DNA of 64,000 nucleotides, taken from the NCBI GenBank assembly GCA_001972305.1, contig BDDD01000080.1, forward strand, positions 545,786 through 609,785, in the 5' to 3' direction. The translations under genes were made by a program, and so were the position numbers. Shown here one piece after another: positions 5,467 through 61,392 of the stretch (position 1 is the stretch's first letter; every line of letters begins with the position of its first letter). This DNA is from Cephalotus follicularis (lineage: Eukaryota; Streptophyta; Magnoliopsida; Oxalidales; Cephalotaceae). The notes under the pieces are model-generated. The model did not search any database. It was not told the origin of the DNA and saw only the letters and a list, made by a program, of their open reading frames with translations.

Positions 5467-5471
5467 GACTT

Positions 5472-6113
5472 GTTGATGCAGAAATACTTTCGTCAATAGT
5501 ACCTCACGTGTAAGAGCTTGATTTATTTAGAGGAGACGCTAGAATCTGTCCGAGAAAGGGTGTTTAGTGATGACTGAAGATCTCTGCACAAGCAAGAGAG
5601 AAAGGTAGAAGGTCCAGGAGGTGGTACTCCCGGGGACACTCCGACGCTCAAGTTAGCAGTTGTACAGAGAGTAATCAGGTTCTTTATGTGCTAGAAAAAT
5701 GGCAGACCTTTGTATTGACTGTTGAACTGGTATTTATAGGAATGTTTGTGACTGATGAACGTCTAATCGGGAGTTGATTGCCCATAAGGAAAAAATGTCA
5801 GTGATTCTGACATTTCCCTTGATCTCCTCTTTGTTTGGTGGCTATGGCTGTAAGCCCATTAATGAATCGAGGGGTTATGCCGGCATGTCAGTCTCTTTTC
5901 CTGCCCTGATGTAATGGGACGTCAGCCAGTTCAAGTGGCTGTGGGGGCGTGCAAGGTTGACCTGATGGTCTTTGTGACTTGTCAATCCGTTGGGCGGCTC
6001 TTTCCTGGTGGTAGAGATGATAAGTGCCACGTGCCCGCTCCCTGAGAGGACATCTGTCGCCTTTCCCTTGAGACGCGTGTCGCTGGGTTTATAATAGGAT
6101 TTTTTCCATATCA
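5472..6113 (-). repeat. LTR of element 1 (3' LTR in element orientation)
   Basis: 642 bp, starts TGTTGATGC and ends CATATCA on the plus strand. It matches 16756-17398 throughout. On the minus strand a TATAAATA box lies at 5738-5731, and a CACGTG G-box at 6028-6033 lies in U3. Confidence 0.95.
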
Positions 6114-6124
6114 TATACCCCCCC
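6114..6124 (-). other. polypurine tract of element 1
   Basis: Directly inside the 3' LTR. On the minus strand it reads a run of seven G followed by TATA and then the LTR, the usual priming site for plus-strand DNA synthesis. Confidence 0.8.
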
Positions 6125-6200: not shown

Positions 6201-6530
6201 GGACCTCCCCTGGGCCGGCTTGAGGATCCTTCCTGGGCGGACCAGGGAAAGGAAGTGGCGAGGCTGTAGGACCCCTTCTGGGCTGGCTTGAGGATCCTTC
6301 CTGGGCGGACCAGGGAAAGGAAGAGGCGGGGCTGTAGGACCCCTCACGGGCTGGCTTGAGGATCCTTCCTGGGCAGAGCAGGGAAGGGAAGAGGCGGGGC
6401 TGTAGGACCCCTTCTGGGCTAGCTTGAGGATCCTTCCTGGGCGGACCAGGGAAAGGAAGAGGCGGGGCTGTAGGACCCCTCCTGGGCTGGCTTGAGGATC
6501 CTTCCTGGACGGACCAGGGAAAGGGAGTGG
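6201..6530. repeat. 68-bp GC-rich tandem repeat, about 4.9 copies
   Basis: Units begin with GGACC at 6201, 6269, 6337, 6405 and 6473. Each contains GGCTTGAGGATCCTTCCTGG and an AGGGAAAGGAAG purine block. The array lies between the PPT and the promoter region of the antisense gene. I see no array at this position in elements 2 and 3. Confidence 0.9.
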
Positions 6531-6833: not shown

Positions 6834-8787
6834 CCCCTTCCCCTTTCAAGGGTACTCTTTACGCTTTCTTGAAACCCTAATAGCATTTGAATCCCTAAAC
6901 TCTTTGCATCCCAAACTAACTTCGTCTCATTCCCCTCGCTTCAGAACACAGGTGAAATATCTCTTCATCCTTCCCACTTCAAACTTTCCCCATGTCCACT
7001 TCGTCTTCCTCGTCCTCTCTTTCTGACAACCCCATGGCCAGAACGAAGCAGACCAAAAGGTTTATCAGGTGCCCCGAAACAGTGGCCCAGGCATCTGCGG
7101 GAGTTACTGTTGCAGTTTGCCCCCTCAATACGGAGGTGGAGATGGAGGCCTCCGCCGCGGGAAACCCTAATGTTGAGGCCACGGGGGCTGGAGTTCAGGT
7201 CTTCAGGACTCACTTTGAAGAGACCACCATGCGCCCGCACAAAATGGCACAGCTGGTCAAGGAATATGCCATTCCTGGTGGTCTGGACCTGGAGATCCCA
7301 GCAGACCCCCGGTCAGCCACGGTGAGCCAGCCCGGGCTTTTCGTGGTGTTCCAGGATGCTTTGGAGCATGGGCTGAGGCTCCCGCTGCCGCCGCTCGCCG
7401 TGACCATCCTCCGACACTACCGGGTCCATCCTTCAGTCCTGCAAGCCCAGTCCTGGGGGTTCATCTTTGGGTTCATCATGCGCTGCCTCTAGGGGAATGC
7501 AGTGACCACCCTTGGGCTGTTCAAAGAGTTCCATACGCTGGCGTCCTCTTCTAAGAAGCGGGGCTTCTACTTCAAATCGCGCATGGGTCGCTCTAGGCTG
7601 CTGGTGGAGAACACCAAGACGGTTAAGCGCTGGAGGGAGAAGTATTTCTTGGTCAGGAATCTGCCCGACTTCGTCCCCTGCCCATTGACCGATACACCGG
7701 ACACTGGCCTGCTGAACTAGAGGTCATTTCTGACCAGGGAAGAGACGGCGGACCTGAGGAGGCTCTCGGCCCTTGAGCCGGAGGACGTGCTGAAGGTGGT
7801 GTCTGAGGACCGCTTGCGGCGGCATGGGTTGAGCATGTCTGTGGGCCGCAGGGCCAGACTGGAGCTGGAGGCTGAGGAGGTGCCTACGGGGGTCCTTAGA
7901 GAGAGGGACCGGGATGGCCGTGGTGGAGCATCTTCGCAGGCGGCCTCGCAGGGAGAGAGCCGCATAAAGCCTTCTCTGGGGCTAGTCTTCTTTTAGTTGT
8001 GTTCAATTTTCTAACGCCCTACTAAATGCATCTTTTTTTTTTTTGTGCAGAGATGGCACGCCAGGACTCTGCCATGGACCTACTCAGGGTCGCTCGCGAA
8101 CAGGCCCACTCTGTGGACCCCGGAACGTAGAGGAGGGAAGCTGAGAAAAGGCAGAAGGCCTTGGAGAAGTCTCGAAGGGCGGCAGAGAGGAGGACGGCCA
8201 GGCAGGCCGAGGCCAGGGCCAGGCTGGATGAGCTGCCTCAGACCATATCCGAGGAGGCCAGGGCGGCCAGTGATGCTGAGGAGAGGGCAGCCCGGGAAAC
8301 AAGGGCAAAGGCGGCTAGGGAGGCTAGGGCTGTGGCAGCCATGGCCGCGAAGGAAAGGGAGGCCAGGGCTGCGAAGGCCTTGGCCGCTGAAGAAGAGCGC
8401 GCCGCTAGGGAGGGGCGTGAAGCCGAAGCCAGGGCTGCTGAGGGGGCCGAAGCTTTCAGAGAGATCCCAGTTGTCTCAGCCAGGGAGCCCATGTCCGATG
8501 TCGAGCTCGGACGTCCTTCAAAGTGGCAGCGGTGAGAGAAGTGGAAGGCCCCCGGGGGGGAGACCGTCGAGAGCCGCCTTTGTGACCCCAACCATCCCTA
8601 CCCCGCTGCGGAGCTCGCGCAGGTGAGGGATATCCTGGGGGAGCTCGGGCGGGCTGGTGTTTGCTTGAGGACGCCGGGGGTTGCCACGGAGCTTGGCCGG
8701 GCAGGAATGTTTCCCTATGAGGCAGGGCTGAGGGAGGAGTGGACGGCGGGGCAACTCTGGACGAACCTCTTCCAGTGCTGCCAGTGG

Positions 8788-9827: not shown

Positions 9828-10020
9828 ATAGCATTTTGGTAATTCAATTATCCATTCCATCTATTTGCTTCAATAACTTACGAAGTACTTAGGAGGCACC
9901 GTACTATGTGACCCCGGACTTTGCCCGCACCACGCGCTGTGCTTGTGCTCTTCTCGGGCCTGCGCTGTCCCCTTAGGACAATCGAGCGTAAATAACATAA
10001 CAGTTCTCTAACTTGATAAA

Positions 10021-10256
10021 CTTGATCACCTAAGCTTGTTAGTCCCCTTAGGACAACAAAGTGTGAATTGTATAATCATCTTTAAACTTGATCGCCTAGG
10101 CTTGTTAGTCCCCTTAGGACAACAAAGTGTGAATTGTATAATCATCTTTAAACTTGATCGCCTAAGCTTGTTAGTCCCATTAGGACAACAAAGTGTGAAT
10201 TGTATAATCATCTTTAAACTTGATCGCCTAAGCTTGTTAGTCCCCTTAGGACACCT
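10021..10256. repeat. 66-bp tandem repeat, about 3.5 copies
   Basis: Units begin CTTGATC at 10021, 10087, 10153 and 10219 and contain TTAGTCCCCTTAGGACAACA. They lie in the spacer between the antisense gene and integrase. Elements 2 and 3 have a single diverged version (near 31510 and 53770). Because 66 is a multiple of 3, the array creates repetitive ORFs on both strands; these are not genes. Confidence 0.9.
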
Positions 10257-16755: not shown

Positions 16756-17398
16756 TGTTGATGCAAAAATCCTTCCGTCAACAGTACCCCACGTGTAAGG
16801 GCTTGATTTGTTTAGAGGAGACGCTGGAATCTGTCCGAGAAAGGGTGTTTAGTGATGGCTGAAGATCCCTGCACAAGCAAGAGAGAAAGGTAGAAGGTCC
16901 AGGAGGTGGTACTCCCGGGGACACTCCGACGCTCAAGTTAGCAGTTGTACAGAGAGTAATCAGGTTCTTTATGTGCTAGAAAAATGGCTGACCTTTGTAT
17001 TGACTGTTGAACTGGTATTTATAGGAATGTTTGTGATTGATGAACGTCTAATCGGGAGTTGAGTGCCCCTAGGGAAAAAATGTCAGTGGTTATGACATTT
17101 CCCTTGATCTCCTCTTTGTTTGGTGACTATGGCTGTAAGCCCATTAATGAATCGAGGGGCTGTGCCGGCATGTCAGTCTCTTTTCCTGCCCTGATGTAAT
17201 GGGACGTCAGCCAGTTCAAGTGGCTGTGGGGGCGTGCAAGGTTGACCTGATGGTCTTTGTGACTTGTCAATCCGTTGGGCGGCTCTTTCCTGGTGGTAGA
17301 GATGATAAGTGCCACGTGCCCGCTCCTTGAGAGGACATCTGTTGCCTTTCCCTTGAGACGCGTGTCGCTGGGCTTATAATAGGATTTTTCCCATATCA
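16756..17398 (-). repeat. LTR of element 1 (5' LTR in element orientation)
   Basis: 643 bp, TGTTGATGC to CATATCA on the plus strand, directly next to the PBS. It carries the gag-pol promoter on the minus strand, with the G-box at 17313-17318 upstream of the TATA box. By eye about 96 percent identical to 5472-6113. Confidence 0.95.
17016..17023 (-). promoter_or_regulatory. TATA box of the element 1 LTR
   Basis: TATAAATA on the minus strand. It is kept in every LTR of the family: 5731-5738, the solo LTR near 19010, 28172 and 38495 regions, and 47899-47906. Confidence 0.7.
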
Positions 17399-17403
17399 TG
17401 ACT

Positions 17404-23828: not shown

Positions 23829-26655
23829 TCTAAGCCCCGGATTTCAAATGTACGAAATTGTGTGTATCTTATTTGTATTTATACAGTATTGTATGGTATT
23901 GTTTATATGAATTGCATGGATTGTATATGATATATATTATTTCTCACTTTTATGATTGTTTATGGGTAGTAGGGGTTCAATAGAATCTAAAGCCTGGTTT
24001 TGAGATTTTCACCAAAAGAAGTCTATATATAGATCGTTCAGCTCTTTCATTTTCACATTCATTTCTCATCTCCTGTTCTAGAAAGAAAGTGAGAAGTGAT
24101 AGGCCTTAGTCAAGTCTCATTTAAGGAATGTGTCAGAGATATTTATACAAGACTTCCTTTGCACACTTCATTCTCTCTACTCCACTCCCCCGTTTTGCTT
24201 TCTCTATTCTCATTTTTTATTCCTCGCCTCCTGTTCTAGAGAGAGTGTGAGTGAGTTAGAGAGAGAAAGCTCGGATTGGAGTAAAGAATGAGTCGTTGAA
24301 CTCGTGGCGGAGCATAGAACCTGAAGAAAGGATCAGATTAAGGATTCAATAGCCAGTTCTTCCAGATCTGTATCTCAACCGTTACCAAGGTAGGTTCTAT
24401 ATATATGCTCTGAACTTGCATATTGAGTGATATGCTTGATTATATGGTTATGGATGTATGTATATGTGTTAGATGGATGAGTTAGGGTGATTGACATGGT
24501 AAATAACAGATTGAAATGGAGATCTGAGAGAGAATAGAACATTTTGCTCAGATACCTTTCTCTCTTGATCTATGGGTTACGGGAATGTATTTTTGATGTT
24601 TTAAAGTTGTTTTCAACTTAAAATTGACCATTGGAGCTTGCAGCTTCCTTTGTATCAGATTTTAAACTGATTTAAATGGTTTTGGATTGAACTGCAACTT
24701 GTTAGCAACTGTTTTCAATGTTCTGCAAAAGGTCGCAAACGTTGATGCCTTTGATTAGAGCGTTGGTGCTTTGCTTAAGAGATAACAAACGACGCCAAGA
24801 GCTCAGAAGCCAAGGCAGAGCTCAGACAGCTGAACGAAGAGCTCAAAATGCTAAGGTAGAGCTCGGACAACTGAAGGAAGAGCTCAGAATGCTAAGGCAG
24901 AGCTCGGACAGCTGAAGGAAGAGCTCAGAGGTAGACGTCAGAGCTCAAAGCTTGAAGTTAGAGCTCGGTGCTTGAAGGAAAACCTCAGAGGTGGAGGTTA
25001 AAGGTAGACATCAAAGCTCAAAGCTCGAAGTCAGATCTCGGTGCTTGAAGGCAGACCTCGGAGGTAGAGGTCAGAGGTAGACGTCAGAGCTCAAAGCTTG
25101 AAGTCAGACCTCGGTGCTTTAAGGCAGACCTCAGAGGTAGAAGTCAGAGCTTAAAGCTCGAAGTCAGACCTCGGTGCTTGAAGGCAGACCTAAGAGGTAG
25201 AGGTCAAACCTTAGATTAAGGAAGTTAAGGCAGAGCTCGGGAAGCTAAAGCAAACCTCGGCGCTTAGCGCCCTGTTCTTTACAAAACACAACATTTTAAT
25301 CCTTTTCAACCCCATATGATTTTCTCTCCAAATGGGTTCCATAGGAAGCCTCTCTAAGGCCTTGTAGCTTATGTGAATCCTCTTGTAACACTATTAACCT
25401 TCAAATCAATCTTCAAAATGAATTTTAAAGAGAAATTTCAATAAAAGAGTTTTATAAACATTTAAATGAATTTCAAAGAGGTTTTCAATAAATGGTTAGG
25501 TCAGTTCAACAGAGATGTTTGGAAGCGAATATCCTAGTTGTGCATCATCTCCATTGTTTTTATAACTCAGATAGGGACCAAGAAATGGTTATTAAAAATT
25601 GTTATGGAAAATGGTTTTGAAAATGGTTTTGATGGATGGATCTATGCGATCCTTTATGGTCAGGTCCTTATCATTTAGATGGTTACATGGTCATGGGTTA
25701 TGAGTATTACATGGTTATGATTATGGTTACGGTTTGTTATTGTTTATGACTTAATAAGATAACCCACTCATAATCTTCATTTTCGTCATGAAGAGTATGG
25801 GTGTGTAACCACATCATCAAGGGAAACATCCCTTTTTGGGTGGACTTATGGGGATCACCGCATTGTGGATGAATATGATTATTCCTAAGAGGATGTTATT
25901 ATCGTATTGTATCGTATGATCGATGTGGTCAGTGTTATCTTGCCCCCACTCCTCTACAACCCCGGAAAGGTAGGTAGGCGGTGGTGGTACTATCTCGGGC
26001 TAGAGGGGCAAAGTGGTACCCATACCCTATGGATTATTTGACCCATGGATGGTTATGGATTGATATATGGAGTGTCTGCGGACCTATGGTCCTTTTGTGA
26101 TCACGACTAACTAAATATGCCACCGCTTAGGGACGGTTGGTATACCAATGCTGTCCATAATTGACATTCATGCATATTACATGTCATGCATATATCTGTA
26201 TATATCTGTTGCACATCATTGCATATAGTATTACCTACATGGCTGTGTTTGGCTGACCCATTCTCGAAATGGGCATAACATCTAGGGTTGAGTGCAGAGG
26301 ACACCTCTGAGTGATCAGACCGGATTTCAAGACAAGACTTCAGTTCCAGTTGCAATTTAGTTCCTCTTGTACCTACCTTGTATAAGATTGATATATAAGA
26401 CTGTTGGTAAATGATGTTTATAGTTCAGCTTTTGACCTGCTGGCTTGTGGCAGTGCTTCAGATTTATGTTGAGATGTATTATGTTGGTTTCATCTGTTGA
26501 AATATTTATACGATTGTTTCCGCAGGCACATTTGTATATTAAAGTTTTAAATTATAGCGTATTTTAGATGTATGCTATGATATTATACGGATGAATTGTA
26601 CAGACAGTTGCCACGTGTCAGACTGTGGGACCTTCCTATGGTTCAGGTCGTGACA
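23829..26655. mobile_element. 2.8-kb solo LTR (Tekay/Del-like)
   Basis: 2827 bp from TCTAAGCCCCGG (TG changed to TC) to CAGGTCGTGACA, with perfect ACTCA duplications (23824-23828 and 26656-26660). The termini and length fit chromoviral Tekay-type LTRs. It contains the GAGCTC array at 24796-25262. Confidence 0.87.
24796..25262. repeat. irregular array based on the GAGCTC palindrome
   Basis: More than a dozen GAGCTC or near-GAGCTC (AGACCTCGG) motifs spaced about 15-30 bp, alternating with GAAGTCAGA, GGTAGA and GCTTGAAGG units. It lies inside the solo LTR. A plus-strand ORF over its start (24718-24915) reads as low-complexity QTAERRAQNAK-type peptide and is not treated as a gene. Confidence 0.8.
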
Positions 26656-27915: not shown

Positions 27916-28415
27916 TGTTGATGTCAAAATCAACACCAAAATAGTCACCTACGTGTAGAGGTTTGATTTGTTCAAGGAAACATCGTGAATGCTCTGAGAA
28001 AGGTGTTTGAACGGTGTTTGGTAGTTCTCCCTCCACACAGAAAGCAAACTAAATGAAGATCCAGGAGGTATTACTCCCGAGGACTCTCCGATGCTTAAGT
28101 TAGTAATGACAGAGAAGACAACAATAGGGCTTTTTTAGTCCAAAATTGACCAATCTGTGTAAAATGTTGCTTTGTGGTATTTATAGGATCTTGTTGTAAC
28201 TGCCTTGGCTTGCGTTACGGAGATGATTATTGTACCCCTAGGAAACGGCCGAGTATCTCTCGATTCCCTTATTTAGTGCCAGAGCGTTATGTTGTGCGTT
28301 ATCTTTTCAGATTGCAAATGATCCGACCACGTGTCTGTAGCTCCAGAGGACACTTGTTTCTTTTTTCTAGAGGACACGTGGCGATTTTATTTTGTATAGA
28401 AATTTCCTCATATCA
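27916..28415 (-). repeat. LTR of element 2 (3' LTR in element orientation)
   Basis: 500 bp, TGTTGATGTC to CTCATATCA. CACGTG boxes lie at 28328-28333 and 28375-28380. TATTTATAGG near 28172 is the minus-strand TATA box. The adjacent PPT has decayed to GGAGCATA. Confidence 0.94.
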
Positions 28416-28840: not shown

Positions 28841-28946
28841 GTGAGCTATTTTTCACTGTTTGTTTTGTAAAATCACCTTAGTGTCTTTAAGGTTTTCCTC
28901 GGCTTCTCCTCTTCTGTCCCTCTCTCTCTCCTTCGCAAAACTCCAG
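28841..28946 (+). other. 5'-UTR intron of the antisense gene, element 2
   Basis: Donor CTCAG|GTGAGC and acceptor CTCCAG directly before the start codon, with a T/C-rich interior. Element 3 has CTCAG|GTGAGT and TTTTTAG before its ATG at the same spacing (48522-48622). Confidence 0.7.
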
Positions 28947-31315
28947 ATGGCTAGGACTAAACAAACCGCCAGACAAATCAGTACCCCTACAAAGGTACGC
29001 CGTGTGGTAGAAGAAGTGAATGTCGCCATGCGTCCTCTTGGTGCCGAGGAGGCTATGGAAGCCCCCGCTGCGGGTGCTCCTGACGTTGCCTCTACCGAGG
29101 CCAGGGTCCAAGTTTTCAGGACTCACTTTGATAGGAGTGTGCTCACTTGGGACAAAGTGAAAAATCTGGCCAAGAAGTACTGTTTTCCAAGGAGCCTAGA
29201 ATACTCGCTTTCTCGAGATCCCAAGGAGGTCACAGATAGCAAACCCGGTATCTTTGTGGTGATTGAAGATGCTCTGTGGCATGGATTGAGACACCCCATA
29301 CCACCTTTCGCTATTGCGATTCTGAGGCACTTTCAAGTTCATCATTCACTGCTTCAAGCGCAATCTTGGGCCTTTATCATAGGCTTCTTGGTAAGGTACT
29401 TGGAAACGGGGGTGACCGCAACGATGGGGCTGTTCAAAGAATTTCATTCCCTCAATGCTTCTCCTGGCAAGTGCCGCTATTATTTCAAGTCTTGTGTTGG
29501 TCTGACCAAGAAACTATTGGTTGATACCACCAAGTCCGTCAAAGGCTGGAGGGGGAGGTATTTCCTTGTTAGGAATCTCCCCGACTTCACTCCCTGCCAT
29601 TGGTGCGACTCGTTGGATACTCAACGCCTCAATCAGAAGGCGATTTTGTCCGCTACAGAGAAGGCAGACCTGGCGAAACTCTCTGCGCTGGAGACTGAGG
29701 AGGTGAACCATACCATCTTCAAGTATTGTTTAAGCCGCGTCGGGCTGAGCATGTCCTCTGGTCGGTGAGATCTCTTGGATGATGAAAAGGAGATCCCAAT
29801 ATGGATAAAGAGATGGGGGGTTCAAAATAGCCGAGATGAACTGGTGACCTCCTCTGTTAACGAGGGGGAGAGCTGTATTAAGCCTTCCTTACCTCCTTCG
29901 CTAATTGTCTTGATTTTGTTCTCTGACTATTTTTTATCATTCATGCTTGTGACTAAGTTTTCTCGTGGTTCTCTGCATCAATGGTTGCTCGACGATCTTC
30001 AGCTGACATCTTGGGGGCTGCTCATGAGAAAGCAAGGATTGTTGCCAAGGAGGAAAAGCGACAAGCCCTGGAGAAAGTGGCTGCAACAACAAATAATAGG
30101 ACAGAGAAGGAAGTTGTCACTGCTACTGCTGCTGCCGAGACTGCTATTGGTGAAGCTGCCAGGGCGAGGTCCGCTAGTGGTAAACGAGTCGCAAAGGACT
30201 AACCATCTCTTCCATCCAAAAAGCATAAGAAGAGTAGAGATGGAGAAGCTTCTTCTCGGGAGCGTTACGGTGCACCCTCTAAGGTGAGACCTTGGGACCT
30301 TACCTGTCTTGGTGTGCCTGTGGACATTGGCCGAGTAGGGGAGGAGCTTGAAGCGCTTGGCAACTCGGGTGTTAGCTTGAGAACTCCAGGGGTGCCAGCT
30401 GAGCTCGGCAAATTGTGCCTCATTCCTGCAGAGGTGGATGCGAGAAAGGGTCGGTCTGTCAACCAACTTTGGACCCACTGCCTTAAGAGCAATATTAGGG
30501 TACGCAACTTCATTCTATTTTTCTTTTTAAGAGAACTTTATACTCTTTCCTTAACTTTGGTCTTCCTTTGTCAGGCTCTGAATGATGCCTATTTATTGCT
30601 AGGAAGCGCCAAGGAAGACTGTAAGCTCATCGACCAGCTTCACGCCGAGGTTGTCAAGCTCAAGAAGTTGGCTGATGCGGCTCGCGCCCATCTGAGGGAT
30701 GTTCTTGGGGCTCAGGAGACTTTCTTGGATGAAAAGAGGCAGGCTCTGGAAGCTCTCGACAAGGAGAAGGAGGAGTGAGAGAAACTCATGCAGACTAATA
30801 AGAATCTTGGTGATGCGCTGATGGTCGCGGAGGGAAGACTCTCAGAGATCCAAGAGACGAAAGTTGCTCAGACTCAAGCGGCGGTTGATCAAGCCCTTGC
30901 GGAGTTTAAAGCATCATCCGAGTTCCAGGGTGCTATAGCTAAGGCCATGGATGACTTTAAAGCTTCCAAGGAATTTGAATAGGAAGTTCTAAAGGAGTCC
31001 GCGATACTTTATCACAGGGGCTTTTACACCTGCTGCAACTAGATCTCTCGCAATCCAGAGACTCCTCTGGATTCTATCTTCTGATGTTTGTCGATGGATC
31101 AGTTTGACTTTTTCCTAGAGGAAGTTGACGCAAAAGAAGCGGAAGCTCTCCTCGCCTTCGAGAAAAATGAAAGGTCGCAAAGGGCGGAGTCATCACACGC
31201 ACTTGTTCCTTACTTTGGTCCTGGTGCCCAGGATATCTTGTCTTTTGAGCCTGTGAACTTTCGAGAGCCTGCTTCTCCTTCTGTACATAGCATCCCTTCA
31301 GGGGATGAAGCTTAG
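28947..31315 (+). pseudogene. antisense accessory gene of element 2, starting with the H3 tail ARTKQTAR
   Basis: Block A (28947 to about 29905) starts MARTKQTARQISTPTKVRR. Residues 2-9 are identical to the mature histone H3 N-terminus; the H3K9 position is Gln. The gypsy-type transposon domain follows: VQVFRTHFDRS, PGIFVVIEDALWHGLRHPIPP, HHSLLQAQSWAFIIGFLVRYLE, GLFKEFHSL and WRGRYFLVRNLPDF. It is open for 273 codons up to a TGA at 29766, then continues in frame. Block B (29981-30499) is Ala/Glu-rich with one stop, then ELEALGNSGVSLRTPGVPAE. The intron 30500-30574 leads to coiled-coil block C (30575-31315), which has several stops and ends IPSGDEA. No histone fold is present, so this is not an H3 gene. 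Its function is unknown. Confidence 0.85.
30500..30574 (+). other. phase-0 intron of the antisense gene, element 2
   Basis: AGG|GTACGC donor and TTTGTCAG|GCTCTG acceptor, at the same place as in elements 1 and 3. Confidence 0.85.
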
Positions 31316-31319
31316 GCTA

Positions 31320-32330
31320 GAATTTTTCTTTTTTGCCTTGTACCTTTTTTGTTATGTAACTTTTTGTTTTCGAGCAATGAAATATAATTTCATCAGCTTC
31401 ATTTTTTGCTTCGTTCGAGCTTTACATATGTTTCCATTAGGAAATTTTATTTAGTCTATCTTATTTGTAGACTTTTTTTTATAAAGGTTTGATATTTTTC
31501 AAACTAAGTCACCTAAGCTTTGTAGCCCTCATAGGACACTTTGTATCAAAGCGCTTAGGCAAGGAGACTTGGTCTTTGCGAGTTCTTAAGTGTTCGCAGA
31601 CCAAGTTTTAGGTATGGTCTGACAAGTTCTTACGAGTTTGTATACCAGGATCTCGTCTGGTCTGATATTTTTCGGACCAGGTAGTCTGAGCTTGTAGCCC
31701 TCGTGGGGACAGTTGTATTAAAGCGCTCAGTCCAACATACTTGATCGTTGCGAGTTCTTATGGGTTCGCCTCTCAAGATACGATATTGGTCTGTTAGGTC
31801 AGGCTCTTATGGGTTAGCAGACCAGTGTTTGCTCCCTTGGGAGTCTTTTGTTTGCCCCCCTTAGGGGCATTTTTTGGATGCTTCCTTAGAAGTCTTTTGT
31901 TGATTGCTCCCTTAGGAGTCTTTTATTGATGAGCTTGTGTTAAAGCTTTAGGCACTCCTCGGACGGGAGTTTTTTGGTGCTCCTCTGGTGGGAGCCTTCT
32001 TGGATTGTAGGCTTTTAGTCTGTTTGAGACATTACTTTGGTGCTTAGTCTATTCGAGACTTGGAGAGCTCTGGTCTTGTATTAAGGCCTACTCTTATCAT
32101 TCCCTTGGGGGTTTTCTTTGCCATCTCCCTTGGGGGTGTGGTTTGACAAACTTGTATCAAAGCTTATGTTGAGGGAACTTGTTGGAGGTTGTTCAAAGGT
32201 TTATGGAAGTGAACATTGGACCTCATGTCCCTTGCGAACTTGGAACTATTTCTTTTGAATAAAAAATTCATCTTTATTGACATTTTTGAAATTGAATATT
32301 TGTACATACTTGTAAACATCATTGATAGTA
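31320..32330. other. convergent non-coding spacer, element 2
   Basis: Lies between the antisense gene and integrase. It contains loose repeats around GGACACTTTGTATCAAAGCG, GCGAGTTCTTA and GGAGTCTTTTGTTG, and the conserved block 32191-32248. No gene was seen. Confidence 0.65.
32273..32278 (-). terminator. AATAAA just after integrase, element 2
   Basis: AATAAA on the minus strand at the same offset from the integrase end as in elements 1 and 3. Confidence 0.45.
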
Positions 32331-32332
32331 CT

Positions 32333-33399
32333 TCCTTAGATGCTCAGCAATCCAGGCCCTAGGAATCTCCTAGCCCCTCAAAGTTTCAAGTTTGAATGTT
32401 CCTGGACGGAGCACTTTCTTTACCTTGTAGAGTCCCTCCCAATTAGGAGCCAATTTTCCTCTGGTGCCGTTAGGATCAGCAATTGCCGCATTGCAGAGGA
32501 CTAAGTCTCCTTCCTTAGTGGTCTGGGGTTTACCCTTTATTGTAATAGCAGCTTGCCGTCTGTTGATAGGCTAATACTCTGATTGCAGCTTTATCTCTGA
32601 GCTCTTCTACTAAGTCGAGGAGGTTCCTCAACCATTCTTCATTATTGGTTTCATTGAAATGCACAACTCTAGGAGAGTGCACCCCAATTTCCACTGGTAT
32701 CATAGCTTCTGATCCGAAACAAAGGCTAAATGGGGACCGATCATGGTCCAAAGAGTGGTTCTGTAAGCCCATAACACACTTGGTAGTTCCTCTATCCATC
32801 TTCCTTTGCTATCTTCAAGGCGTTTTTTCAACCCTAAGATGATCTCTCTGTTAATGACCTCTGCTTGGACATTGCTCTGGGGGTATGCTACATAGGCAAG
32901 TCTATGCTCAATTCTCCATTCTTTGCAAAAGTCTCAAAAAGCTTGACAATGAAATTGTTTCCCATTATCATAGACGATTACTCTTGAGACTCCAAATCTG
33001 CAAATGATTGACTTCCAGACAAAGCTCTTCGTCTTGCTTTCCGTTATTGTGGCCATGGGTTCTGCTTCCACTCATTTGGTGAAGTAGCCCACCGCCATAA
33101 TGAGGTACTTTCTCTGCCCTGTTGCTACTGGTAATGGTCCGACAAAGTCCATTCCCCATTGTGCAAAGGGCCAAGGAGCAGTGATAGATGTCAATTGCTC
33201 TGATGGTCTTCTGCTTATGTTTGCATTCCTCTGAAACTTATCACATTTTTTACAAAGTCGATGGCATCTTGGTGCATGGTCGGCCAAAAATAGTCTTGCC
33301 TCAACAATTTATTGGACAAGGTTCTGCTCCCCGTGTGGTTTCCACACACTCCTTCATGGACCTCTCTCAGAGCGTAGTCGGCCACTGATGGGGTTAAAC
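32333..33399 (-). pseudogene. integrase, element 2
   Basis: The finger start HEGVCGNHTGS with CDKFQRNANISRRPSE (second Cys lost to Phe), WGMDFVGPLPVATGQRK, IPVEIGVHSPRVVHFNE and a decayed C-terminus. It is split over several frames. Compared with element 1, the catalytic region around 32850-32990 is interrupted by stops. Confidence 0.85.
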
Positions 33400-34654
33400 A
33401 TCTCAACAGAGGGAAAGAAAATGACATTTTGTAGAGGATCCCTTCTCTGAATTGGTATCTGTTTGATCTATAGACCAACTTTCTTGCCTCCTCTGGAAAA
33501 ATTCCATCCTTTAGCCAATTAATGAATGAGGTCATCCAGTTTGGCTCCTGTTGAATATCGATGTCAATCACATCCGTGTCCGAGATGGTGGACCTGTATA
33601 GATAGTCTACAAGTACGGTTCGATTCTTTTCTAATTCCTCTGTTGTAACTAGCTTCGACAACTGGTCTGCTCTTGCATTCTCTGCTCTGGGAACTTTCAA
33701 AACTCGGAATACTTCGAAAGCCGACCTCAAATTCTGAACATGGGCTAAGTATTTAGTAATGGAGTCTTCTCTGGCTTCATATTCTCCGCTCACCAGACCA
33801 ACCACTAGCTGAGAATCACTAGAGGCTTCTATTTTTTGAACCTCTACGTGCCTCATAATTACCAATCTGGCAATTAGAGCTTCTCATTCCGCTTCATTAT
33901 TTGTTGCTTTGAACCCAAATCTCAGAGCATACTCCAAGGTCTAACCATCCGGACTAGTTGGTACTAATCCTGCTCCACTTCTGGATATACAGGATGAGCC
34001 ATCAACTTATAGTTTCCATAACCCCTTTTCATTTTCTAAGGAGTCCTCTTCCATACACTCCGTATGTGTATTATCTCTCACAAAATCTGCCAAGACATGT
34101 GATTTTATTGTTTTTCTGGCTTCATACTTCACGTCGTACTCGCCCAATTTGACAGACCACTTGATCAGCCTGCCTGACATGTCTGACTTTGCTAGCACTT
34201 CTCTTAATGGCTTGTCCGTAAAAACTTTGATAGTGAGGGCTTGGAAGTACGGCCTTAGCTTTCTCGCCGCGATGATCAGAGCATAGGCATACTTCTCTAC
34301 CTCTGAATACCTCTCCTCAACTTCATCCAAGGCTTTGCTGACATAATACACCAGCCTTTGAACTTTGTCCTCTTCCCTGACTAGCACTGCACTCAGTGCG
34401 CCTTGTGTTGCCGCAAGGTACAAATACAAGTCTTCCTCATCTCTTGGTTTTGATATCAAAAGAGGGGAAGCTAGGTATTCCTTCAATTTCTTGAAGGCTT
34501 CTTGACATTCTTCAAACCAGGGAAACCCCTTGGGGTTCCTTAACACTTTGAAGATGGGAAGACATTTCTTCGCTGACTTGGAAACAAATCTGTTTAGGGC
34601 TGCGATTTTATTGTTTAATCTATGCACATCCCTAATAGACTGAGGAGGCTTCAT
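33400..34654 (-). pseudogene. RNase H plus second RNase H, element 2
   Basis: The first domain is open at 34654-34007 (KKLKEYLASPLLISKPRDEEDLY..., YYVSKALDEVEERYSEVEKYAYALIIAA). The second starts decayed near 34000 and is readable from 33865, with IEASSDSQLVVGLVSGEYE, AENARADQLSKLV and INWLKDGIFPEE. The break between them has a stop where element 1 has SVDGSSC. Confidence 0.88.
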
Positions 34655-34657
34655 GCT

Positions 34658-35790
34658 CTAAATAGCAGAATTCTTCGCTGGGTTGACCTTTATTTCTCTG
34701 CTCGAGATCATAAACCCGATGAACTTACCAGAATTGATCCCAAAAGTGCACTTGGAAGGGTTGATGCACATCTTGTATCTTCTTAATACCTCAAAGGTCT
34801 CTTCCAAGTCTTTAATGTGAGGACTCCTTAATGGTGTCTTGACGAGCATATCGTCAAAGTAAACCTCCATATTCCTCCCGATCTGAGGCTCAAAGATTTT
34901 GTTGACCAACCTTTTTGTTGACGTTTAAGTCTCAATCCTTGTTTTGATGATAACATATTTGCATCTAACTAAGTTGATTTATGTGCAAGGAATTACAAGT
35001 TGAATATCAAAGTCTAAATGCCTCCTTAATCAAATCGAGATAGTGGAAACTCAAGGAGCTCCCTTGAGAAAAGTGGACGTAGGCAAGAGTTAGCCGAACC
35101 ACTCTAAATTTCGGAGAAGTTTTTCTTTCCTTATCTCTTTAAATTTAAAGTTTTTAAATTTCCGTATATTCCTCAATATTCAATTCACCCCCCCTCTTGT
35201 ATATTGCAAGAGTGTTTTATTTCACTTTTGTAGGTCACCCCTGAATTTTTTAATCAGAAGGGCATGACTTTATAACAATACATACCTCTATCAGTGATGA
35301 AAGCTGTCTTGTTCTCATCTGGTCCATACATAGGGATTTGATTATAGCCAGAGTACATATCCAAGAAGCTCAACATTCTGTAACCAGAGGTTGCATCCAC
35401 CAACTGATCAATCTTCGGGAGGGAGAAATGGTCTTTTGGACAAGCTTTGTTGAGGTCTGTAAAGTCTATGCACATCCTCCATTTGCCATTTGCTTTCTTG
35501 ACTAGTACCGGGTTTGTCAGCCAGTCAGAGTATTGCACTTCCCTAATAAACCCTGCTTGTAATAGCTTACTCACCTTATCTGCTATCACCTGGTCCCTCT
35601 TGGGCACAAAGTTTCTCTTCTTTTGCCAGGTTGAAAGCCGCATTGGATCTACACTTAGTTTATGCACCATCACCTATGGGTTGATCCCTGAAACCTCATT
35701 TGCCGACAAGGCGAACACGTCTCTGTTGTTTTTTAGGAACGTTATTAGTTCCTCTTTATCCACCTCTCCAAGTTGTGAGCCAACCTGAAA
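34658..35790 (-). pseudogene. reverse transcriptase of element 2, split by a solo LTR
   Basis: The first part (35673-35254) has REVQYSDWLTNPVLVKKANG, intact where element 1 has its 11-bp deletion, then MCIDFTDLNKACPKD and SFLDMYSGYNQI. The second part (34909-34658) has VNKIFEPQIGRNMEVYFDDMLVK; the catalytic motif is YFDD instead of YIDD. The 309-bp insert at 34916-35224 separates them. Confidence 0.9.
34916..35224 (+). mobile_element. 309-bp solo LTR (Copia, Sirevirus-like) inside RT
   Basis: TGTTGACG to TTATTTCA with perfect CTTTT duplications (34911-34915 and 35225-35229). It shares GTGGACGTAGGC...GCCGAACCAC and TTCACCCCCCCTCT with the sense strand of the LTR at 58112-59260, so its sense is plus, opposite to element 2. 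It could also be a TRIM-type LTR. Confidence 0.88.
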
Positions 35791-35954
35791 TACTTTCTCA
35801 CACTGCCTTCCTCCAAAGGCACCTACACAACATCTTCCACAGGTTGTGGACACTCAGGCTCCACTCCTCCTCTGAGTTCCACATTTGCTATGGGAAGGGC
35901 TTTTCCCTTCCCCTTGTCCTTTATGATAGTCTGGTAGCACTGCCTAGCAACCTG

Positions 35955-36530
35955 CTAATCTCCTCGGATTTCTCCCACACCAAACTTGGTCGGGAATTTT
36001 ACCAATAAGTGTATAGTTGACACTATTGCCTTCATCAAGTTCAATCCTGGCCGCCCAATTATGGCATTGTACAGGCTTGGTGTATCAATCACCAGGAAGG
36101 TCATCTGTACTTGGGTCTGGCGTGGGGCTGTGCTTGCAACCACTAACAATTTGATTGATCCTAGAGGAAGGACCATCTCTCCCGCGAAGCCTACCAAAAG
36201 AGTCTTGACAGGCTTTAGCTGGTCTGGTGGGATCTTCAGCTGATCAAATGCATATTTGTAGAGGATGTCTGCCGAGCTTCCACTATCAATGAGGATTCTT
36301 TTAATAGTGAATAATTCCACTAGAAGAGTTACTACCACTGGATCGTCGTGAGTGAGACATACCCCCTCATAGTCCGCCTCTGAGAAGGATATAACCTCCT
36401 CTTCTCCACCTAACTTCAACCTTTTACTATGCATGTATTGTTGCACAGCAAATGTCTCTCTAGCATAGGCTTTTCGAGCCCTGCTATGGTCGCCACCAGA
36501 TGCAACCCCTCCAGAGATGGTGTGTATCAC
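35955..36530 (-). pseudogene. aspartic protease, element 2
   Basis: An open 191-codon frame with ILIDSGSSADILYKYAFDQL, LVGFAGEMVLPLGSIKLLV and YNAIIGRPGLNLMKAI. The active site is intact. This is the longest undamaged piece of this copy's polyprotein. Confidence 0.88.
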
Positions 36531-36943
36531 ACCTCTGGGCTGTTGCTCTTCTTCTTGCTACGGAGCTTCTTCTTTGCTCTCCCTTCTTCCTTGGGGAGCA
36601 TCTCTGTCAACATACTTTCTTAGATAACCTTTGTGGATTAGGTCCTCTATTTGGTTCTTCAAATGCCTGCACTCTTCCGTATCATGCCCATGATCATGAT
36701 GGTACCGGTAGTATTTGTCTGAATCCCTCTTCTCCGTCAGGGATCTGAATAGTGCTGGCTATTGGATATGGACCCTATCCTTCTCCACTGCCAATATCCT
36801 GGTCCGCGTCTCCAAGGGAGGGGAAAAGTTGTTGTAATTGGGGATTGGTGTTCCCCTTTTTGGTGACTCCTCTCTCCTGGAAAGTTTGTGCCTAAGGTCA
36901 TCTTTGGTTAGCTCTAACCTCTCTTTTCTCTTTTGTTTCTTCC
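36531..36943 (-). pseudogene. CCHC-like finger region, element 2
   Basis: Contains HDHGHDTEECRHLKNQIEDL near 36660-36710. The first finger Cys of element 1 is replaced by Tyr (DKYYRYH), so the finger is probably non-functional. Confidence 0.75.
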
Positions 36944-38173
36944 CTATAGAGCACTTCGTGAGTGCTCCTCTTTCTCCGCCTGATGGCCCGACCAGGAAGT
37001 CTTCTGCTTTCCAGCTGCCATCGCCTTCTCTGCATTCACGTACTTCTCTGCTCTTCTCATCAGGTCTGCCATATCCAAAGCAGGCTTCTTCATTAGGAAA
37101 AAAGTAAAGGGTGAGTTGTCTTTTAACCCACTATTCAGAACTGCCAACGCAAAAGATGGCTCCAAGTATTTAACCATCAGAGACTCCCTGTTGAATCTGG
37201 TGAGGTAGTCCCCGAGGGATTCATCATTCCCTTACACCACGTTGATTAGATAGTTTGAATTCTTCTTGCATGGTGCTGTTGAGGAATTTGGTAACGAACA
37301 GTTCCGTAAACTGCTCGAAGTTCGCCATTGTATTTTGAGGTAGCGTGGAGTACCACGCCTGGGCTGCACCTGTCAGAGTTGCGGGGAATCCTCGGCAAAG
37401 CACAGCATCCGAAGCTTGATGAACTAACATGATTTGTGTGTAGTAGCGCACATGTTGGATCGGGTCAGTGGGCCATCGTACTCCTTGAGATTCGGGAATC
37501 GAAATCCTCTTGGGATTCGCTCCCTCATTATCTCTGGTGTGAAGGGGGTACAGTTGATATTTCGTACCTCGGATAGGTACCCCTTGGAATGCTCGGCTAC
37601 TCTGAGCCTCTTCTCCATCTCGGTAAACCTTCTGTTCATAGTCTGCTCCACATCGTCAATGTTCCTGATCCTGCTAGAAACATGCGATGTACCAGTTGCA
37701 AGTCCGACAGAGTCGTCTGACCTGCTCCTCTACAAAGTTCCCATCCTACGAGATGCGTAGGAACGTGCTTGGGTCTCTTCCTCCTCCGCTGCACAACCCG
37801 CTTCCATCGGATCCTGCTCTGGAAGGTCTTGTTGGGGATTATAGCTATAATCCCTTGCACTCGAAGACTCCGCCCTTAGAGATGTATCAATCTCTGACCG
37901 CCTTGGAGGACGCGTGGCCCTCCTCAACGGGTTTCGTCTGGCCCTTTGGGGCTGTTGGACTTCCGTGGTTTGCCTGCTCAGCCCAGCCTGATTTTGGCTG
38001 ATCAAGTTATTCGCCAACAATGTTGTAAGATGTCTCATTTCTTGGAGCAACTGATTGAATTGCTTGCCAGTGATGGGAGCTTGCTCGGGAACCTGAACAG
38101 GAGCCAGTGCTTGGTTGTTAGCAGGAGCTTAGCTGTTGGTGGCTGCCGAGATGATGTTTCTCCTAGGAGGCAT
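36944..38173 (-). pseudogene. Gag, element 2 (frameshifted)
   Basis: Starts MPPRRN at 38173, 58 nt inside the LTR. Pieces in several frames cover the Arg/Gln-rich N-terminus (38050-37730), MNRRFTEMEKRLRVAEHSKG and RIPRGFRFPNLKEYDG (37651-37424), FPATLTGAAQAWYSTL and FVTKFLNST (37451-37224), and KKPALDMADLMRRAEKYVNA (37177-36944). Confidence 0.88.
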
Positions 38174-38230: not shown

Positions 38231-38731
38231 TGTTGATGTCAAAATCAACACCAAAACAGTCCCATGCGTGTAGAGATTTGATTTGTTCAAGGAAACGCCG
38301 CGAATGCTCCGAGAAAGGTGTTTGAACGGTGTTTGGTAGTTCTCCCTGTATACAGAAAGCAAACTAAACGAAGATCCAGGAGGTTTTAATTCCCGGGGAC
38401 TCTCCGATGCTTAAGTCAGTAATGGCAGAAAAGACAACAATAGGGCTTTTTTAGTCCAGAATTGACCGATCTGTGTAAAATGTTGCTTTATGATATTTAT
38501 AGGATCTTGTTGTAACTGCATTGACTTGCGTTACGGAGATGGTTATTGTACCCCTAGGAAACGACAGAGTATCTCGCCATTCCCTTGTTTAGCGTCGGAG
38601 CGTTATGTTGTGCGTTATCTTTTAAAATTGTAAATGATCCGACCACGTGTCTGTAGCTCCAGATGACACTTGTCTTGTTTTTCTAGAGGACACGTACCGA
38701 TTTTATTTTGTATAGAAAATTTTCCATATCA
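38231..38731 (-). repeat. LTR of element 2 (5' LTR in element orientation)
   Basis: 501 bp, TGTTGATGTC to CCATATCA. The mutated PBS lies directly to its left (38211-38228). Confidence 0.94.
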
Positions 38732-48521: not shown

Positions 48522-48622
48522 GTGAGTCGTGCTCTGTTCTTCATTTTTGCAAACTGATTAGGGCGTCTCTTGTGTTTTTCTAGCTTCTCATTCCCTTTCT
48601 CTCTCTCTTCACGAATTTTTAG
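48522..48622 (+). other. 5'-UTR intron of the antisense gene, element 3
   Basis: CTCAG|GTGAGT donor and TTTTTAG acceptor directly before ATG, matching element 2. Confidence 0.7.
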
Positions 48623-49853
48623 ATGGCTAGAGTAAAGTAGACTTGCAGACTAGCTACTAATGAGGAAACACGCCACATGGCCGAGGCAGTGACTGTTGCT
48701 GAGTGTCCTCTTAGCTCAGAGGATGTCGTGGATGCCATAGCGGTGGGTGGTTCTGAAGTCACTTCCTCCAGAGTTAGGACCCAGGTTTTTAGAACCCACC
48801 ATGGGAAGAGCGTGTTTCTTCGTGAGAAAGCGGAGAAGTTGGCGAAATCATACTGCTTCCCTAGACGTTTGGCGATCTCCATTCCCCGAGATGCCAAGGA
48901 GGCCACGGAGAGCAGACCTGGCCTCTTCGTTATTTATGAGGATGCTCTCACTCATGGCCTGAGGCTTCCTCTGCATCCCTTCGCTGTTGCGGTCTTGTAG
49001 AGCTTCCAACTTCATCATTTTCTCTTCTTCAAGCGCAGTCCTGGAGCTTCATTATGGGCTTCTTAGTGAAGTGCCTGGAAGCAGAGGTGACAGCTACAGT
49101 GGGGCTCTTCGAGGAGTTTCATGCCCTTACTACGTCTCCTATCAAGCGCGGATACTATTTCAAGTCACACGCTGGTCTGACCAACAAGCTGCTGGTGGAT
49201 CCTATGAAATCCATCAAGAACTGGAGGGAGAGGTAATTCCTCATTACGAATCTCTCTAACTTTTTGCCCCATCTTGATACGATTTGTTGGATACCCAGCA
49301 TCTGAACCAGAGGTCAAATCTATTTGAGGCAGAGAAGACAGACATGACTAAGCTGTCAATGCTAGAGCCAGAGGAGGTCAACTTCTCTGTGACCAAGGAC
49401 CGTCTGTGCCATGTCGGACTAAGCATGTCTAGAGGTCACAGGAATGCCTTAGACGATGAAGAGGAGGTGCAGGAGGGGGTTGAGAGAGAAAGGGCTAGAT
49501 AGAGCAGAGAATGACCCAGAGCTGAGCCTAGAAGCGAGGGGGAAAGCTGTATTAACCGTTCATCTCCTCCTATGCTTTTAACATCTTCGTTCTGTTCATT
49601 CCTTCTTGTAATTTATGCTTTTAACTTTGTTTTCATTGTTCTTTGCATCAATGGCTCCTCAACGCTATTTCACTGATGTGTTGAAGGCCACTAGAGTAGA
49701 GGAGCAGAAGAAAATGATTGCTACCAAAGGATCCAAAATCTCCGAGAGGGGCCATGCCGAAGAGGCGAGGCAGAGAGCCTTGAAGGAAGCCGTTGTGGGG
49801 GTGAAGAAGAGAGCTGAGAAGGAGGCTGTAGGGCCGCCAAGAAGAAGTGTGTG

Positions 49854-53681: not shown

Positions 53682-54060
53682 AGATAGTTTTTTGTTTCAT
53701 TTTAGTCTATCAAATTCCTATGTAATTGTAGACATCTTTCGTACTGGCCTGCTATTTTTCAGATCGGGTCGCTTGAGCTTTTTAGGCCCCATGGGGGCAC
53801 TTGTGTCAAAGATCTCAACCAACGAGACTTGTCTTGATCTTTGCGAGTTCTTGTGTGTTCGCCTATCAAGATATGTTTTAGATATTGTCTGACAAGTTCC
53901 TATGAGTTTACAGAATAGCATTTGTTTTGTAGCTAAGACTTCGTTTTATGACTCTTTTAGGCTTTTTTGGGCTTAGAGAGTTAGGTTTCTGTATTAAGGC
54001 CCCGCTATGAGATATTTAACTGCTCTTTGTTTTGGATTTTTTGAATATGCTTGTATTAAA

Positions 54061-54262
54061 GCTTTCAGACTTGGAGAGCTATGGTCCTGTATCAAGGCCC
54101 TGCTCTGATTGCTCCATTGATTGCTCTTCGGCTGGGAGTTTTTGACTAAGCTTGAATTAAAGCTTTCATACTTGGAGAGCTATGTCCTGTATCAAGGCCA
54201 TGCTCTGACTGCTCCCTTTATTGCTCTTTGGCTGGGAGTCTTTGACTAAACTTGTATTAAAA
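54061..54262. repeat. 101-bp tandem duplication in the convergent spacer, element 3
   Basis: Two copies starting GCTTTCA-ACTTGGAGAGCT at 54061 and 54162, each with TGTATCAAGGCC and GGCTGGGAGT. A weaker third copy lies upstream near 53960. Confidence 0.85.
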
Positions 54263-54429
54263 CTTTAATCTTTTATTGTGGGAGCTGCTAAAGGCTGTTC
54301 AGAGGTTTAAGGATGTGAACATTGGATCTCTTGTCTCTTGCAAACTTGGAACTGATTCTTGTATTAAAAAAACATCATCTTTATTGAATGGATTGAACAC
54401 TTGCACATTTTTTTGCACATCATTAATAG

Positions 54430-57466: not shown

Positions 57467-57640
57467 TGGTATCTGCCCTGGCTTCGTATTCTCCACTAAC
57501 TAGAGCAACCAATAGCTGAGAATCACTAGAGACTTCAAGTTTTTGAACCTCCAAGTGCTTTGTTATAGTCAGTTTAGCAATCAGAGCTTCCTATTCTGCT
57601 TCATTGTTCGTCGCTTTGAATCCAAATCTCAGAGTGTAGT

Positions 57641-58053
57641 CTATTTAATAAAGCAAGTTTAGCATTCTTAACTTGCTCGGTACCCTCATGGGTAAGGATG
57701 AGCAATTTCCACACTTCATGTGCGGAAGTACATCTCCTAACGAGATTGTACTCGGTTTTATCTAAGGATACAAGCAATATATTTAAAGCCTTATTATCTA
57801 TGGTCAATTTCCTAAAGTCATCCTCATCCCATTCGTCTTCCGGTTTGGAAACGAGTTCGTTTTTGTCATTTAACTTCATAGGGGTGTGAGAGCCATTTTT
57901 CACACTAAGCCAATTCCTAAAGTCTCTAGACTTAAGGTATATCTCCAGACGACTTTTCCAATATGGAAAATCGTCACCACTAAAGAATGGTACCTTAAAT
58001 TCGGAGACATCATCATTGTGTCTAGATTGGTTGTTCATGCTAGTTGAGGCCAT
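57641..58053 (-). pseudogene. N-terminal Gag of the left Sirevirus body
   Basis: Starts MASTSMNNQSRHNDD 45 bases after the PBS. It contains PFFSGDDFPYWKSRLEIYLK and EVWKLLILTHEGTEQVKNAK, typical of Copia Gag. It is truncated at 57641, where the frame runs 13 codons into element 3 in an unrelated reading frame. Confidence 0.88.
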
Positions 58054-58097
58054 GATGTTTTACTCAAGATGTTAATCTTTATAAAATGAGCACACTA

Positions 58098-58109
58098 GCT
58101 CTGATACCA
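58098..58109 (-). other. initiator-Met PBS of the Sirevirus-like element
   Basis: TGGTATCAGAGC on the minus strand, two bases from the LTR end. Confidence 0.88.
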
Positions 58110-58111
58110 AT

Positions 58112-59260: not shown

Positions 59261-59275
59261 ATCTCCCCCTTTTTG
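59261..59275 (-). other. polypurine tract next to the Sirevirus LTR
   Basis: AAAAAGGGGGAGAT on the minus strand, directly before the LTR TGTTGG. Confidence 0.85.
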
Positions 59276-61222: not shown

Positions 61223-61332
61223 AAGGTTGAATGCCGGTTCGAAATTGAGAGTGTTTAGGGTTAGGGGCATTTTTGTTTTGAGAGAAAGTGAAAGAGCATA
61301 TGGGAATTCGGGTTTTAAAACCCTGATTCCCG

Positions 61333-61392
61333 CACTTCCAGTCGACTGAGCCTTTAATGCCAGTCGACTGGACAAATTGTCCAGTCGACTGC
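61333..61392. repeat. three CAGTCGACTG palindromes upstream of the extra ORF
   Basis: Perfect or near-perfect copies at about 61338, 61361 and 61381, the same motif as the LTR array, just upstream of the extra ORF's start. Confidence 0.85.

What the first reader, a model, noticed from the sequence alone, without database searches (positions are those of the whole stretch)
28947..29003. Histone H3 tail at the N-terminus of a retrotransposon antisense protein
Seen: the element 2 antisense ORF begins M-ARTKQTAR. These eight residues equal the mature H3 N-terminus, and the next residues keep an ST and a basic cluster (QISTPTKVRR), with Gln at the K9 position. No histone fold follows. Known: Met before Ala is normally removed, so the protein would expose the same free end as H3, which is read by PHD-type H3K4/R2 readers and modified by H3 enzymes. 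Inference: the transposon protein may mimic the H3 tail to recruit or titrate chromatin readers or writers. I do not know whether this has been described.
Basis: partly seen in the sequence, partly recalled or inferred. Interest (0 to 1): 0.88.

Follow-up and report, generated by a model that had tools for sequence, protein, structure and literature searches.

The report
Histone-tail look-alike on a retrotransposon protein
A jumping-gene family in what is very probably the Australian pitcher plant makes an accessory protein whose first eight exposed residues match, exactly or nearly, the tip of histone H3 in hundreds of copies, which suggests (but does not prove) that the element mimics a histone tail to manipulate the host's chromatin proteins.

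Summary
Confirmed and extended. The + strand ORF at 28947 begins M-ARTKQTAR, identical to H3 residues 1-8, antisense to gag-pol in a Retand/Tat-like Ty3-gypsy element. Two other window elements start the same protein MARTKQTKR and (decayed) MARVK*TCR; of 2333 ATGs in the window only these three are within three mismatches of the H3 octapeptide. The genome (almost certainly Cephalotus follicularis) has 548 matches to the coding pattern; of 100 listed I could classify 66, all copies of this TRP28 (PF04195) retroelement protein, none H3. In copies chosen by TRP28 similarity, not by motif, the usual starts are MARVKQTAR, MARTKLTAR and MARTKQTAR. Freeing one codon at a time shows R2 and K4 nearly fixed, T3 often V, residue 5 free. 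Between subfamilies, residues 1-8 stay 68% identical (silent 0.91, replacement 0.20 per site) while residues 10-26 fall to 24%. The ATG usually follows a splice-acceptor-like AG, so the peptide should be N-terminal. No relative was found outside Cephalotus, so the cross-species test is open. Best reading: an N-terminal H3-tail mimic aimed at readers or enzymes of the R2/K4 region. Binding is untested, and a generic basic N-terminus remains a real rival.

The parts
27916..28415 (.). el2 left LTR (the element's 3' LTR, since gag-pol is on the minus strand)
   Evidence: pairs with 38231-38731 at 90.6% identity; TG...CA ends, flanks CATAT / CATTT
28841..28946 (+). predicted 5'-UTR intron: CAG|GTGAGC donor, pyrimidine-rich tract, CTCCAG acceptor directly before the ATG
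   Evidence: read from sequence; same layout in el3; AG precedes the ATG in 33 of 48 pattern-selected copies. No transcript evidence
28947..28973 (+). M-ARTKQTAR, identical to H3 residues 1-8 after Met removal
28974..29111 (+). variable linker
   Evidence: 24-59% identity in 12 between-copy comparisons; residues 10-26 at 24% between motif-blind subfamilies
29112..29765 (+). TRP28 (Transposase_28, PF04195, residues 104-170) and following conserved region of the antisense protein; stop at 29766-29768
38231..38731 (.). el2 right LTR (5' LTR)
32190..37687 (-). el2 gag-pol region (RNase H and integrase zinc-binding matches; aligns at DNA level to the el1 gag-pol region)
7034..7849 (+). el1 antisense TRP28 protein, MARTKQTKR start, internal stops; an in-frame ATG at 6992 lies upstream
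5471..6114 (.). el1 left LTR (right LTR 16756-17399, 96.3% identical)
48623..49436 (+). el3 antisense TRP28 protein, decayed start MARVK*TCR, with stops and frameshifts
48522..48622 (+). el3 predicted 5'-UTR intron CAG|GTGAGT ... TTTTTAG|ATG
   Evidence: by inspection
6201..6524 (.). 68-bp tandem array between the el1 left LTR and the antisense ORF

Best explanation
A clade of Retand/Tat-like Ty3-gypsy elements encodes, antisense between pol and the 3' LTR, a TRP28 accessory protein. In most copies read its start codon sits directly after a splice-acceptor-like AG, so that after Met removal (inferred) it exposes an H3-like N-terminus, A-R-(T/V)-K-x-T-A-R. Shown: the sequence, its placement at the first ATG in most copies read, its spread over hundreds of genome places, and conservation that is positional and at protein level. 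Inferred: the tail is a short linear motif that binds host factors reading or editing H3 around R2/K4 (PHD fingers including VIM/ORTH-type, LSD1-like demethylases, H3K4 methyltransferases). The TRP28 part (DNA binding is a published prediction) would then deliver or sequester those factors at the element, favouring its transcription.
For: 548 genome matches to the ATG-ARTKQTAR pattern, reversed control 0; of the 100 places listed, 66 classified by their downstream sequence or a TRP28 hit, all this protein, none H3. Copies chosen by TRP28 similarity, not by motif: mismatches to H3 1-8 of 0/1/2/3/4 in 2/17/17/8/1 of 48 el2-like copies (3 without a readable start), and 0/1/2 in 7/25/7 of 40 B-type copies (1 without). 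Between these two sets (45 x 39 copies), residues 1-8 are 68% identical with silent 0.91 and replacement 0.20 per site; residues 10-26 are 24% identical with 0.68 and 0.53 at the better offset. Positional scan: freeing R2 gives 595 matches, K4 608, T3 723, Q5 1202, against 548 exact; reversed controls 0 or 1. 25 DNA spellings in 48 pattern-selected copies. AG precedes the ATG in 33 of 48, 36 of 46 and 28 of 39 copies. Precedents: VRT motifs of PAF15 and DPPA3 in the UHRF1 PHD finger (PMC11187062, passages); SNAG domain as H3-tail mimic in LSD1 (PMC5896174, passages); the TE-encoded anti-silencing protein VANC (PMC5735166, abstract).
Against: Position 5 is free: 654 of 1202 matches are not Q; in the 33 sequences shown, 16 are not Q: 10 R, 3 L, 2 C, 1 stop (these places were not read further). 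T3 is V in 37 of 46 el2-like copies. K9 and the rest of the H3 tail are absent. A basic pattern R-x-K-x-x-x-R alone could serve import or nucleic-acid binding. No relative outside Cephalotus was found, so the motif may be young. The 30 loci ranked best by the PF04195 profile show no recurrent motif. A PDB search with the first 22 residues returned only two H3 sequences, but at E 0.68 and 7.9, not significant. No expression, N-terminal processing or binding data exist. el1 has an upstream in-frame ATG. The three window copies all carry stops.
Confidence: 0.45

Rival explanations
1. A generic basic N-terminal motif (nuclear import, RNA/DNA contact, or an N-terminal stability signal) with pattern MARxKxTxR; identity to H3 is a coincidence helped by repeated lineage changes at positions 3 and 5.
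For: Residue 5 is free and T3 often V; the residues kept include R2, K4 and R8; Grande gene23, another antisense protein of this kind, is reported to be nuclear (cited in PMC7264820, passages).
Against: A1 (38 of 46, 37 of 39), T6 (41 of 46, 35 of 39) and mostly A7 (33 of 46, 31 of 39) are kept as well, although they are not basic. In the sample of 88 copies chosen without the motif, 51 match H3 1-8 at 7 or 8 of 8 positions.
Confidence: 0.32
2. Relic of capture: a piece of a host H3 gene start (leader plus first codons) was fused to the TRP28 ORF and has been kept by descent without an H3-like role.
For: Exact octapeptide identity in many copies; retroelements can transduce genes (PMC7264820, passages).
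Against: Resemblance stops at residue 8. Between subfamilies the eight codons carry 0.91 silent against 0.20 replacement differences per site, so passive descent does not explain persistence. Host H3 gene DNA was not compared.
Confidence: 0.1
3. Constraint at DNA or RNA level (splice acceptor, start context) rather than on the peptide.
For: The ATG abuts an acceptor-like AG in most copies read and has an ATGGC context.
Against: Many synonymous spellings and high silent change between subfamilies.
Confidence: 0.05

Closest known systems
Retand-lineage antisense TRP28 proteins (Retand ORF4, RIRE2, Grande gene23)
   Same: antisense ORF between pol and the 3' LTR, with PF04195 in Retand; 97% of recently active Retand clusters carry a TRP28 antisense ORF (PMC11963269, abstract and passages; PMC7264820, passages)
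   Different: no H3-like N-terminus appears in the passages read; the terms histone, N-terminal and MARTK have 0 occurrences in the main text of PMC11963269
PAF15 / DPPA3 VRT motif, UHRF1 PHD ligands
   Same: short (V/A)RT motif occupies the H3 ART site of a PHD finger; PAF15 uses its N-terminus (PMC11187062, passages)
   Different: mammalian host proteins; the shared motif is three residues, against up to eight here
SNAG domain (GFI1, SNAI1) with LSD1
   Same: N-terminal peptide acting as an H3-tail mimic in a chromatin enzyme (PMC5896174, passages)
   Different: different sequence (recalled), host transcription factors
VANC anti-silencing proteins of VANDAL elements
   Same: TE-encoded accessory protein acting on host silencing; targets often tandem repeats in the TE (PMC5735166, abstract)
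   Different: another kind of TE (recalled: DNA transposon); no H3-like tail mentioned in the abstract
Influenza NS1 H3-like tail (recalled, no call)
   Same: parasite protein with an H3-like peptide
   Different: C-terminal, ARSK, animal virus

Membership tests
Retand/Tat Ty3-gypsy elements with antisense TRP28 ORF | LTR pair, gypsy gag-RT-RNaseH-integrase, long pol-3'LTR region with antisense PF04195 ORF | tested here: met
   LTRs of el1 and el2; gag, RT, RNase H and integrase domains in el1; PF04195 in el1 and el2 antisense ORFs
Retand/Tat Ty3-gypsy elements with antisense TRP28 ORF | reverse-transcriptase phylogeny places it in the Retand lineage | not tested
   the lineage name rests on layout and on the TRP28 ORF
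Histone H3 tail mimics | linear sequence matching the H3 tail | tested here: met
Histone H3 tail mimics | motif is N-terminal in the mature protein | tested here: inconclusive
   no in-frame upstream ATG before a stop in 46 of 48 copies and AG before the ATG in 33 of 48; no transcripts or N-terminal proteomics
Histone H3 tail mimics | binds an H3 reader, writer or eraser | not testable with these tools
   needs peptide binding assays
Histone H3 | histone fold after the tail | tested here: not met
   only PF04195 above cut-off in Pfam
VANC-like anti-silencing proteins | causes DNA hypomethylation of the TE | not testable with these tools
   compared by analogy only

The most novel reading that the evidence does not exclude
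A plant retrotransposon lineage evolved an N-terminal H3-tail mimic on its antisense TRP28 protein to capture H3 R2/K4 readers or erasers (for example VIM/ORTH or LSD1-like proteins) as a retroelement anti-silencing device. [quoted passage not shown]
Probability: 0.4. Interest if true: 0.88.

Novelty: new variant of a known kind. Interest (0 to 1): 0.74.

Why it matters
If true, it gives a testable function to the long-unexplained antisense proteins of Retand/Tat elements. It would be a plant-retrotransposon case of histone mimicry, with hundreds of natural variants already serving as a mutational scan. It also shows how annotation can miss such motifs: none of the 21 deposited relatives read contains it.

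Tried and rejected
Considered and rejected: that the genome matches are ordinary H3 genes (0 of 66 classified); that the motif is private to one copy (three window elements and several subfamilies carry it); that every TRP28 protein carries it (the 30 loci ranked best by the PF04195 profile show no recurrent motif; their true starts were not identified, and the best single match, MAITKLTKR in L044, scores no higher than chance-like matches such as the one in L043). Protein searches gave only Cephalotus, so the cross-species test led nowhere. AF2 model of el2: mean pLDDT 46.7, too poor to use for folds or for disorder. Rfam: nothing at gathering scores. A donor-site regex on the 48 pattern-selected copies found a CAG|GTGA donor in only one (L083), so the intron is best supported in el2 and el3. 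Counts for A1, T6, A7 and R8 in the positional scan were not obtained (T6 asked, tool busy; the others not asked). Biased evidence: comparisons that involve L005, L008, L071, L079, L104, L108 or el2 are conditioned on the motif and carry no weight; the unconditioned pair A_L011/el1 gives 78% identity over codons 1-9 with replacement 0.22, against 51% and 0.31 in the TRP28 part and 37% and 0.41 in the linker, a modest gap on nine codons, so I added. The motif-blind copies were still picked for similarity to the TRP28 part of motif-bearing copies (49 and 40 read, each from a list of the 150 best of 11121 and 11532 first-look candidates), starts were placed at the best-scoring match to the H3 9-mer, and near-duplicates (L011/L012) were not removed. 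One search includes L033, whose best 9-mer is not at the true start; leave it out. Counts are copies, not independent events. No claim is made that the mimicry is unpublished beyond, judged by titles and abstract starts; the last was too broad (307,119 papers) to exclude a report.

Full report
What was claimed and what is there. The ORF at 28947 (+) starts MARTKQTARQISTPTKVRR. After Met-1 the first eight residues equal histone H3 1-8. It is the first ATG in its frame, encodes a Transposase_28 (TRP28, PF04195) protein and runs antisense to gag-pol in an LTR element with LTRs 27916-28415 and 38231-38731 (90.6% identical, TG...CA ends, near-matching 5-bp flanks CATAT/CATTT). The copy itself is interrupted by a stop after residue 273.

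Not chance within the window. Two further elements of the same kind lie in the window. el1 starts the protein MARTKQTKR at 7034, and el3, heavily decayed, MARVK*TCR at 48623. Of all 2333 ATGs on both strands, only three are within three mismatches of ARTKQTAR, with 0, 1 and 3 mismatches, the values of these three starts.

Genome-wide. The window lies in G000, 1.58 Gb in 9746 contigs. The organism is inferred to be Cephalotus follicularis: the protein relatives listed all come from it, and contig C38 has the same length, 1,230,257, as the contig listed for protein P0005. The pattern for ATG-ARTKQTAR matches 548 places, reversed control 0. The Arg codons in the pattern admit Ser, and one of 48 copies read ends in Ser. 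Of the 100 places listed I could classify 66: 48 from loci, 11 from 16 residues each and 6 by overlap with TRP28 hits, plus el2 itself. All 66 are copies of this retroelement protein, several of them frameshifted or with stops; none is an H3 gene. The remaining places were not classified.

Copies chosen by TRP28 similarity, not by motif. Among 48 el2-like copies (L010-L038 and L109-L128, less L033), mismatches to H3 1-8 are 0 in 2, 1 in 17, 2 in 17, 3 in 8 and 4 in 1, with 3 lacking a readable start. Among 40 B-type copies (L129-L168): 0 in 7, 1 in 25, 2 in 7, with 1 lacking. The commonest forms are MARVKQTAR (12 copies) in the first set, and MARTKLTAR (14) and MARTKQTAR (7) in the second.

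Which positions matter. With one codon freed at a time, the genome count rises from 548 to 595 at R2, 608 at K4, 723 at T3 and 1202 at Q5; reversed controls are 0 or 1. So R2 and K4 are close to fixed. Among the places listed, the non-T codons at position 3 are mostly Val, and the non-K codons at position 4 mostly one AAC form. Residue 5 is free: of the 33 sequences shown, 16 are not Q (10 R, 3 L, 2 C, 1 stop). Counts for A1, T6, A7 and R8 were not obtained. In the motif-blind tally T6 is kept in 41 of 46 and 35 of 39 copies, and R8 in 39 of 46 and 39 of 39 (the 46 include the misplaced L033).

Protein-level constraint. Between the el2-like and B-type copies chosen without the motif (45 x 39), residues 1-8 are 68% identical, with 0.91 silent and 0.20 replacement differences per site; residues 10-26 are 24% identical at the better offset, with 0.68 and 0.53. 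el1 compares similarly with both sets (69% and 78% over residues 1-8; 27% and at most 18% over the next). Forty-eight pattern-selected copies use 25 DNA spellings. A nucleotide tree of 78 copies, rooted on el1, places the Val-3 copies inside the el2-like part and el3 (also Val-3) beside the B part. Thr-3 in el1, in B and in part of the el2-like set makes T3 the likelier older state, but most Thr-3 copies in that tree were pattern-selected, one branch (L033) is misaligned, and the root is a choice. The older state at residue 5 is open.

N-terminal exposure. The ATG follows AG in 33 of 48 pattern-selected copies, 36 of 46 el2-like and 28 of 39 B-type copies, usually after a pyrimidine-rich tract. 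el2 and el3 also have CAG|GTGAG donors about 100 nt upstream; a regex found such a donor in only one of the 48 pattern-selected copies. In 46 of 48 copies no in-frame ATG lies upstream before a stop. el1 is an exception, with an in-frame ATG at 6992 and no AG before 7034. Removal of Met before Ala is general knowledge, not a result here. None of the 21 deposited Cephalotus relatives read contains the motif; their models begin at later residues. Whether the motif lies upstream of each was not checked.

How it may work. The tail is followed by a variable linker and then TRP28, for which DNA binding has been predicted and a regulatory role proposed (PMC11963269, passages). Known ligands show that ART/VRT termini dock in the UHRF1 PHD finger (PMC11187062, passages), and that the SNAG peptide mimics the H3 tail in LSD1 (PMC5896174, passages). 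A plant TE protein, VANC, induces loss of DNA methylation in TEs, with targets often forming tandem repeats (PMC5735166, abstract). el1 has a 68-bp tandem array beside its left LTR. I therefore favour an H3-tail mimic that captures R2/K4-region readers or enzymes at the element. The binding partner and the outcome are inference.

Limits. No other species could be tested. The 30 loci ranked best by the Pfam profile (L039-L068) show no recurrent motif, so the motif seems to belong to one clade of TRP28 elements. The free residue 5 and V3 weaken strict H3 identity and keep a generic basic N-terminus alive as a rival (about 0.3). A PDB search with the first 22 residues returned only two H3 sequences at non-significant E-values, 0.68 and 7.9. 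The AF2 model was too poor to use. Host H3 genes were not compared. Literature searches, judged by their listings, showed no report of an H3-like N-terminus on a plant retroelement protein, but they cover open-licence PMC papers only.

Noticed in passing
P0001-P0021 (Cephalotus annotated proteins): None of the 21 deposited proteins of this family contains the H3-like start; several begin at a later Met (for example MVVPTAERPL...).
   Followed up: partly
L039-L068: The loci ranked best by the PF04195 profile are a second, divergent TRP28 group in the same genome without a recurrent H3-like start.
   Followed up: partly
window 24797-25215: Overlapping tandem arrays with units of about 20, 41, 60 and 73 bp containing AGAGCTC-like words.
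   Followed up: no
window 6201-6524, 10017-10253, 54021-54266: Tandem repeats with different units (68, 66, 100 bp) around the antisense gene region in el1 and near el3.
   Followed up: no
window 57601-64000: ORFs that look like copia-type gag/integrase/RT pieces (by eye), with a 234-bp direct repeat (57640-57873 / 63767-64000).
   Followed up: no
G000 genome-wide: Places with K4 changed to N (AAC codon) and residue 5 changed to R, L or C in the octapeptide.
   Followed up: partly
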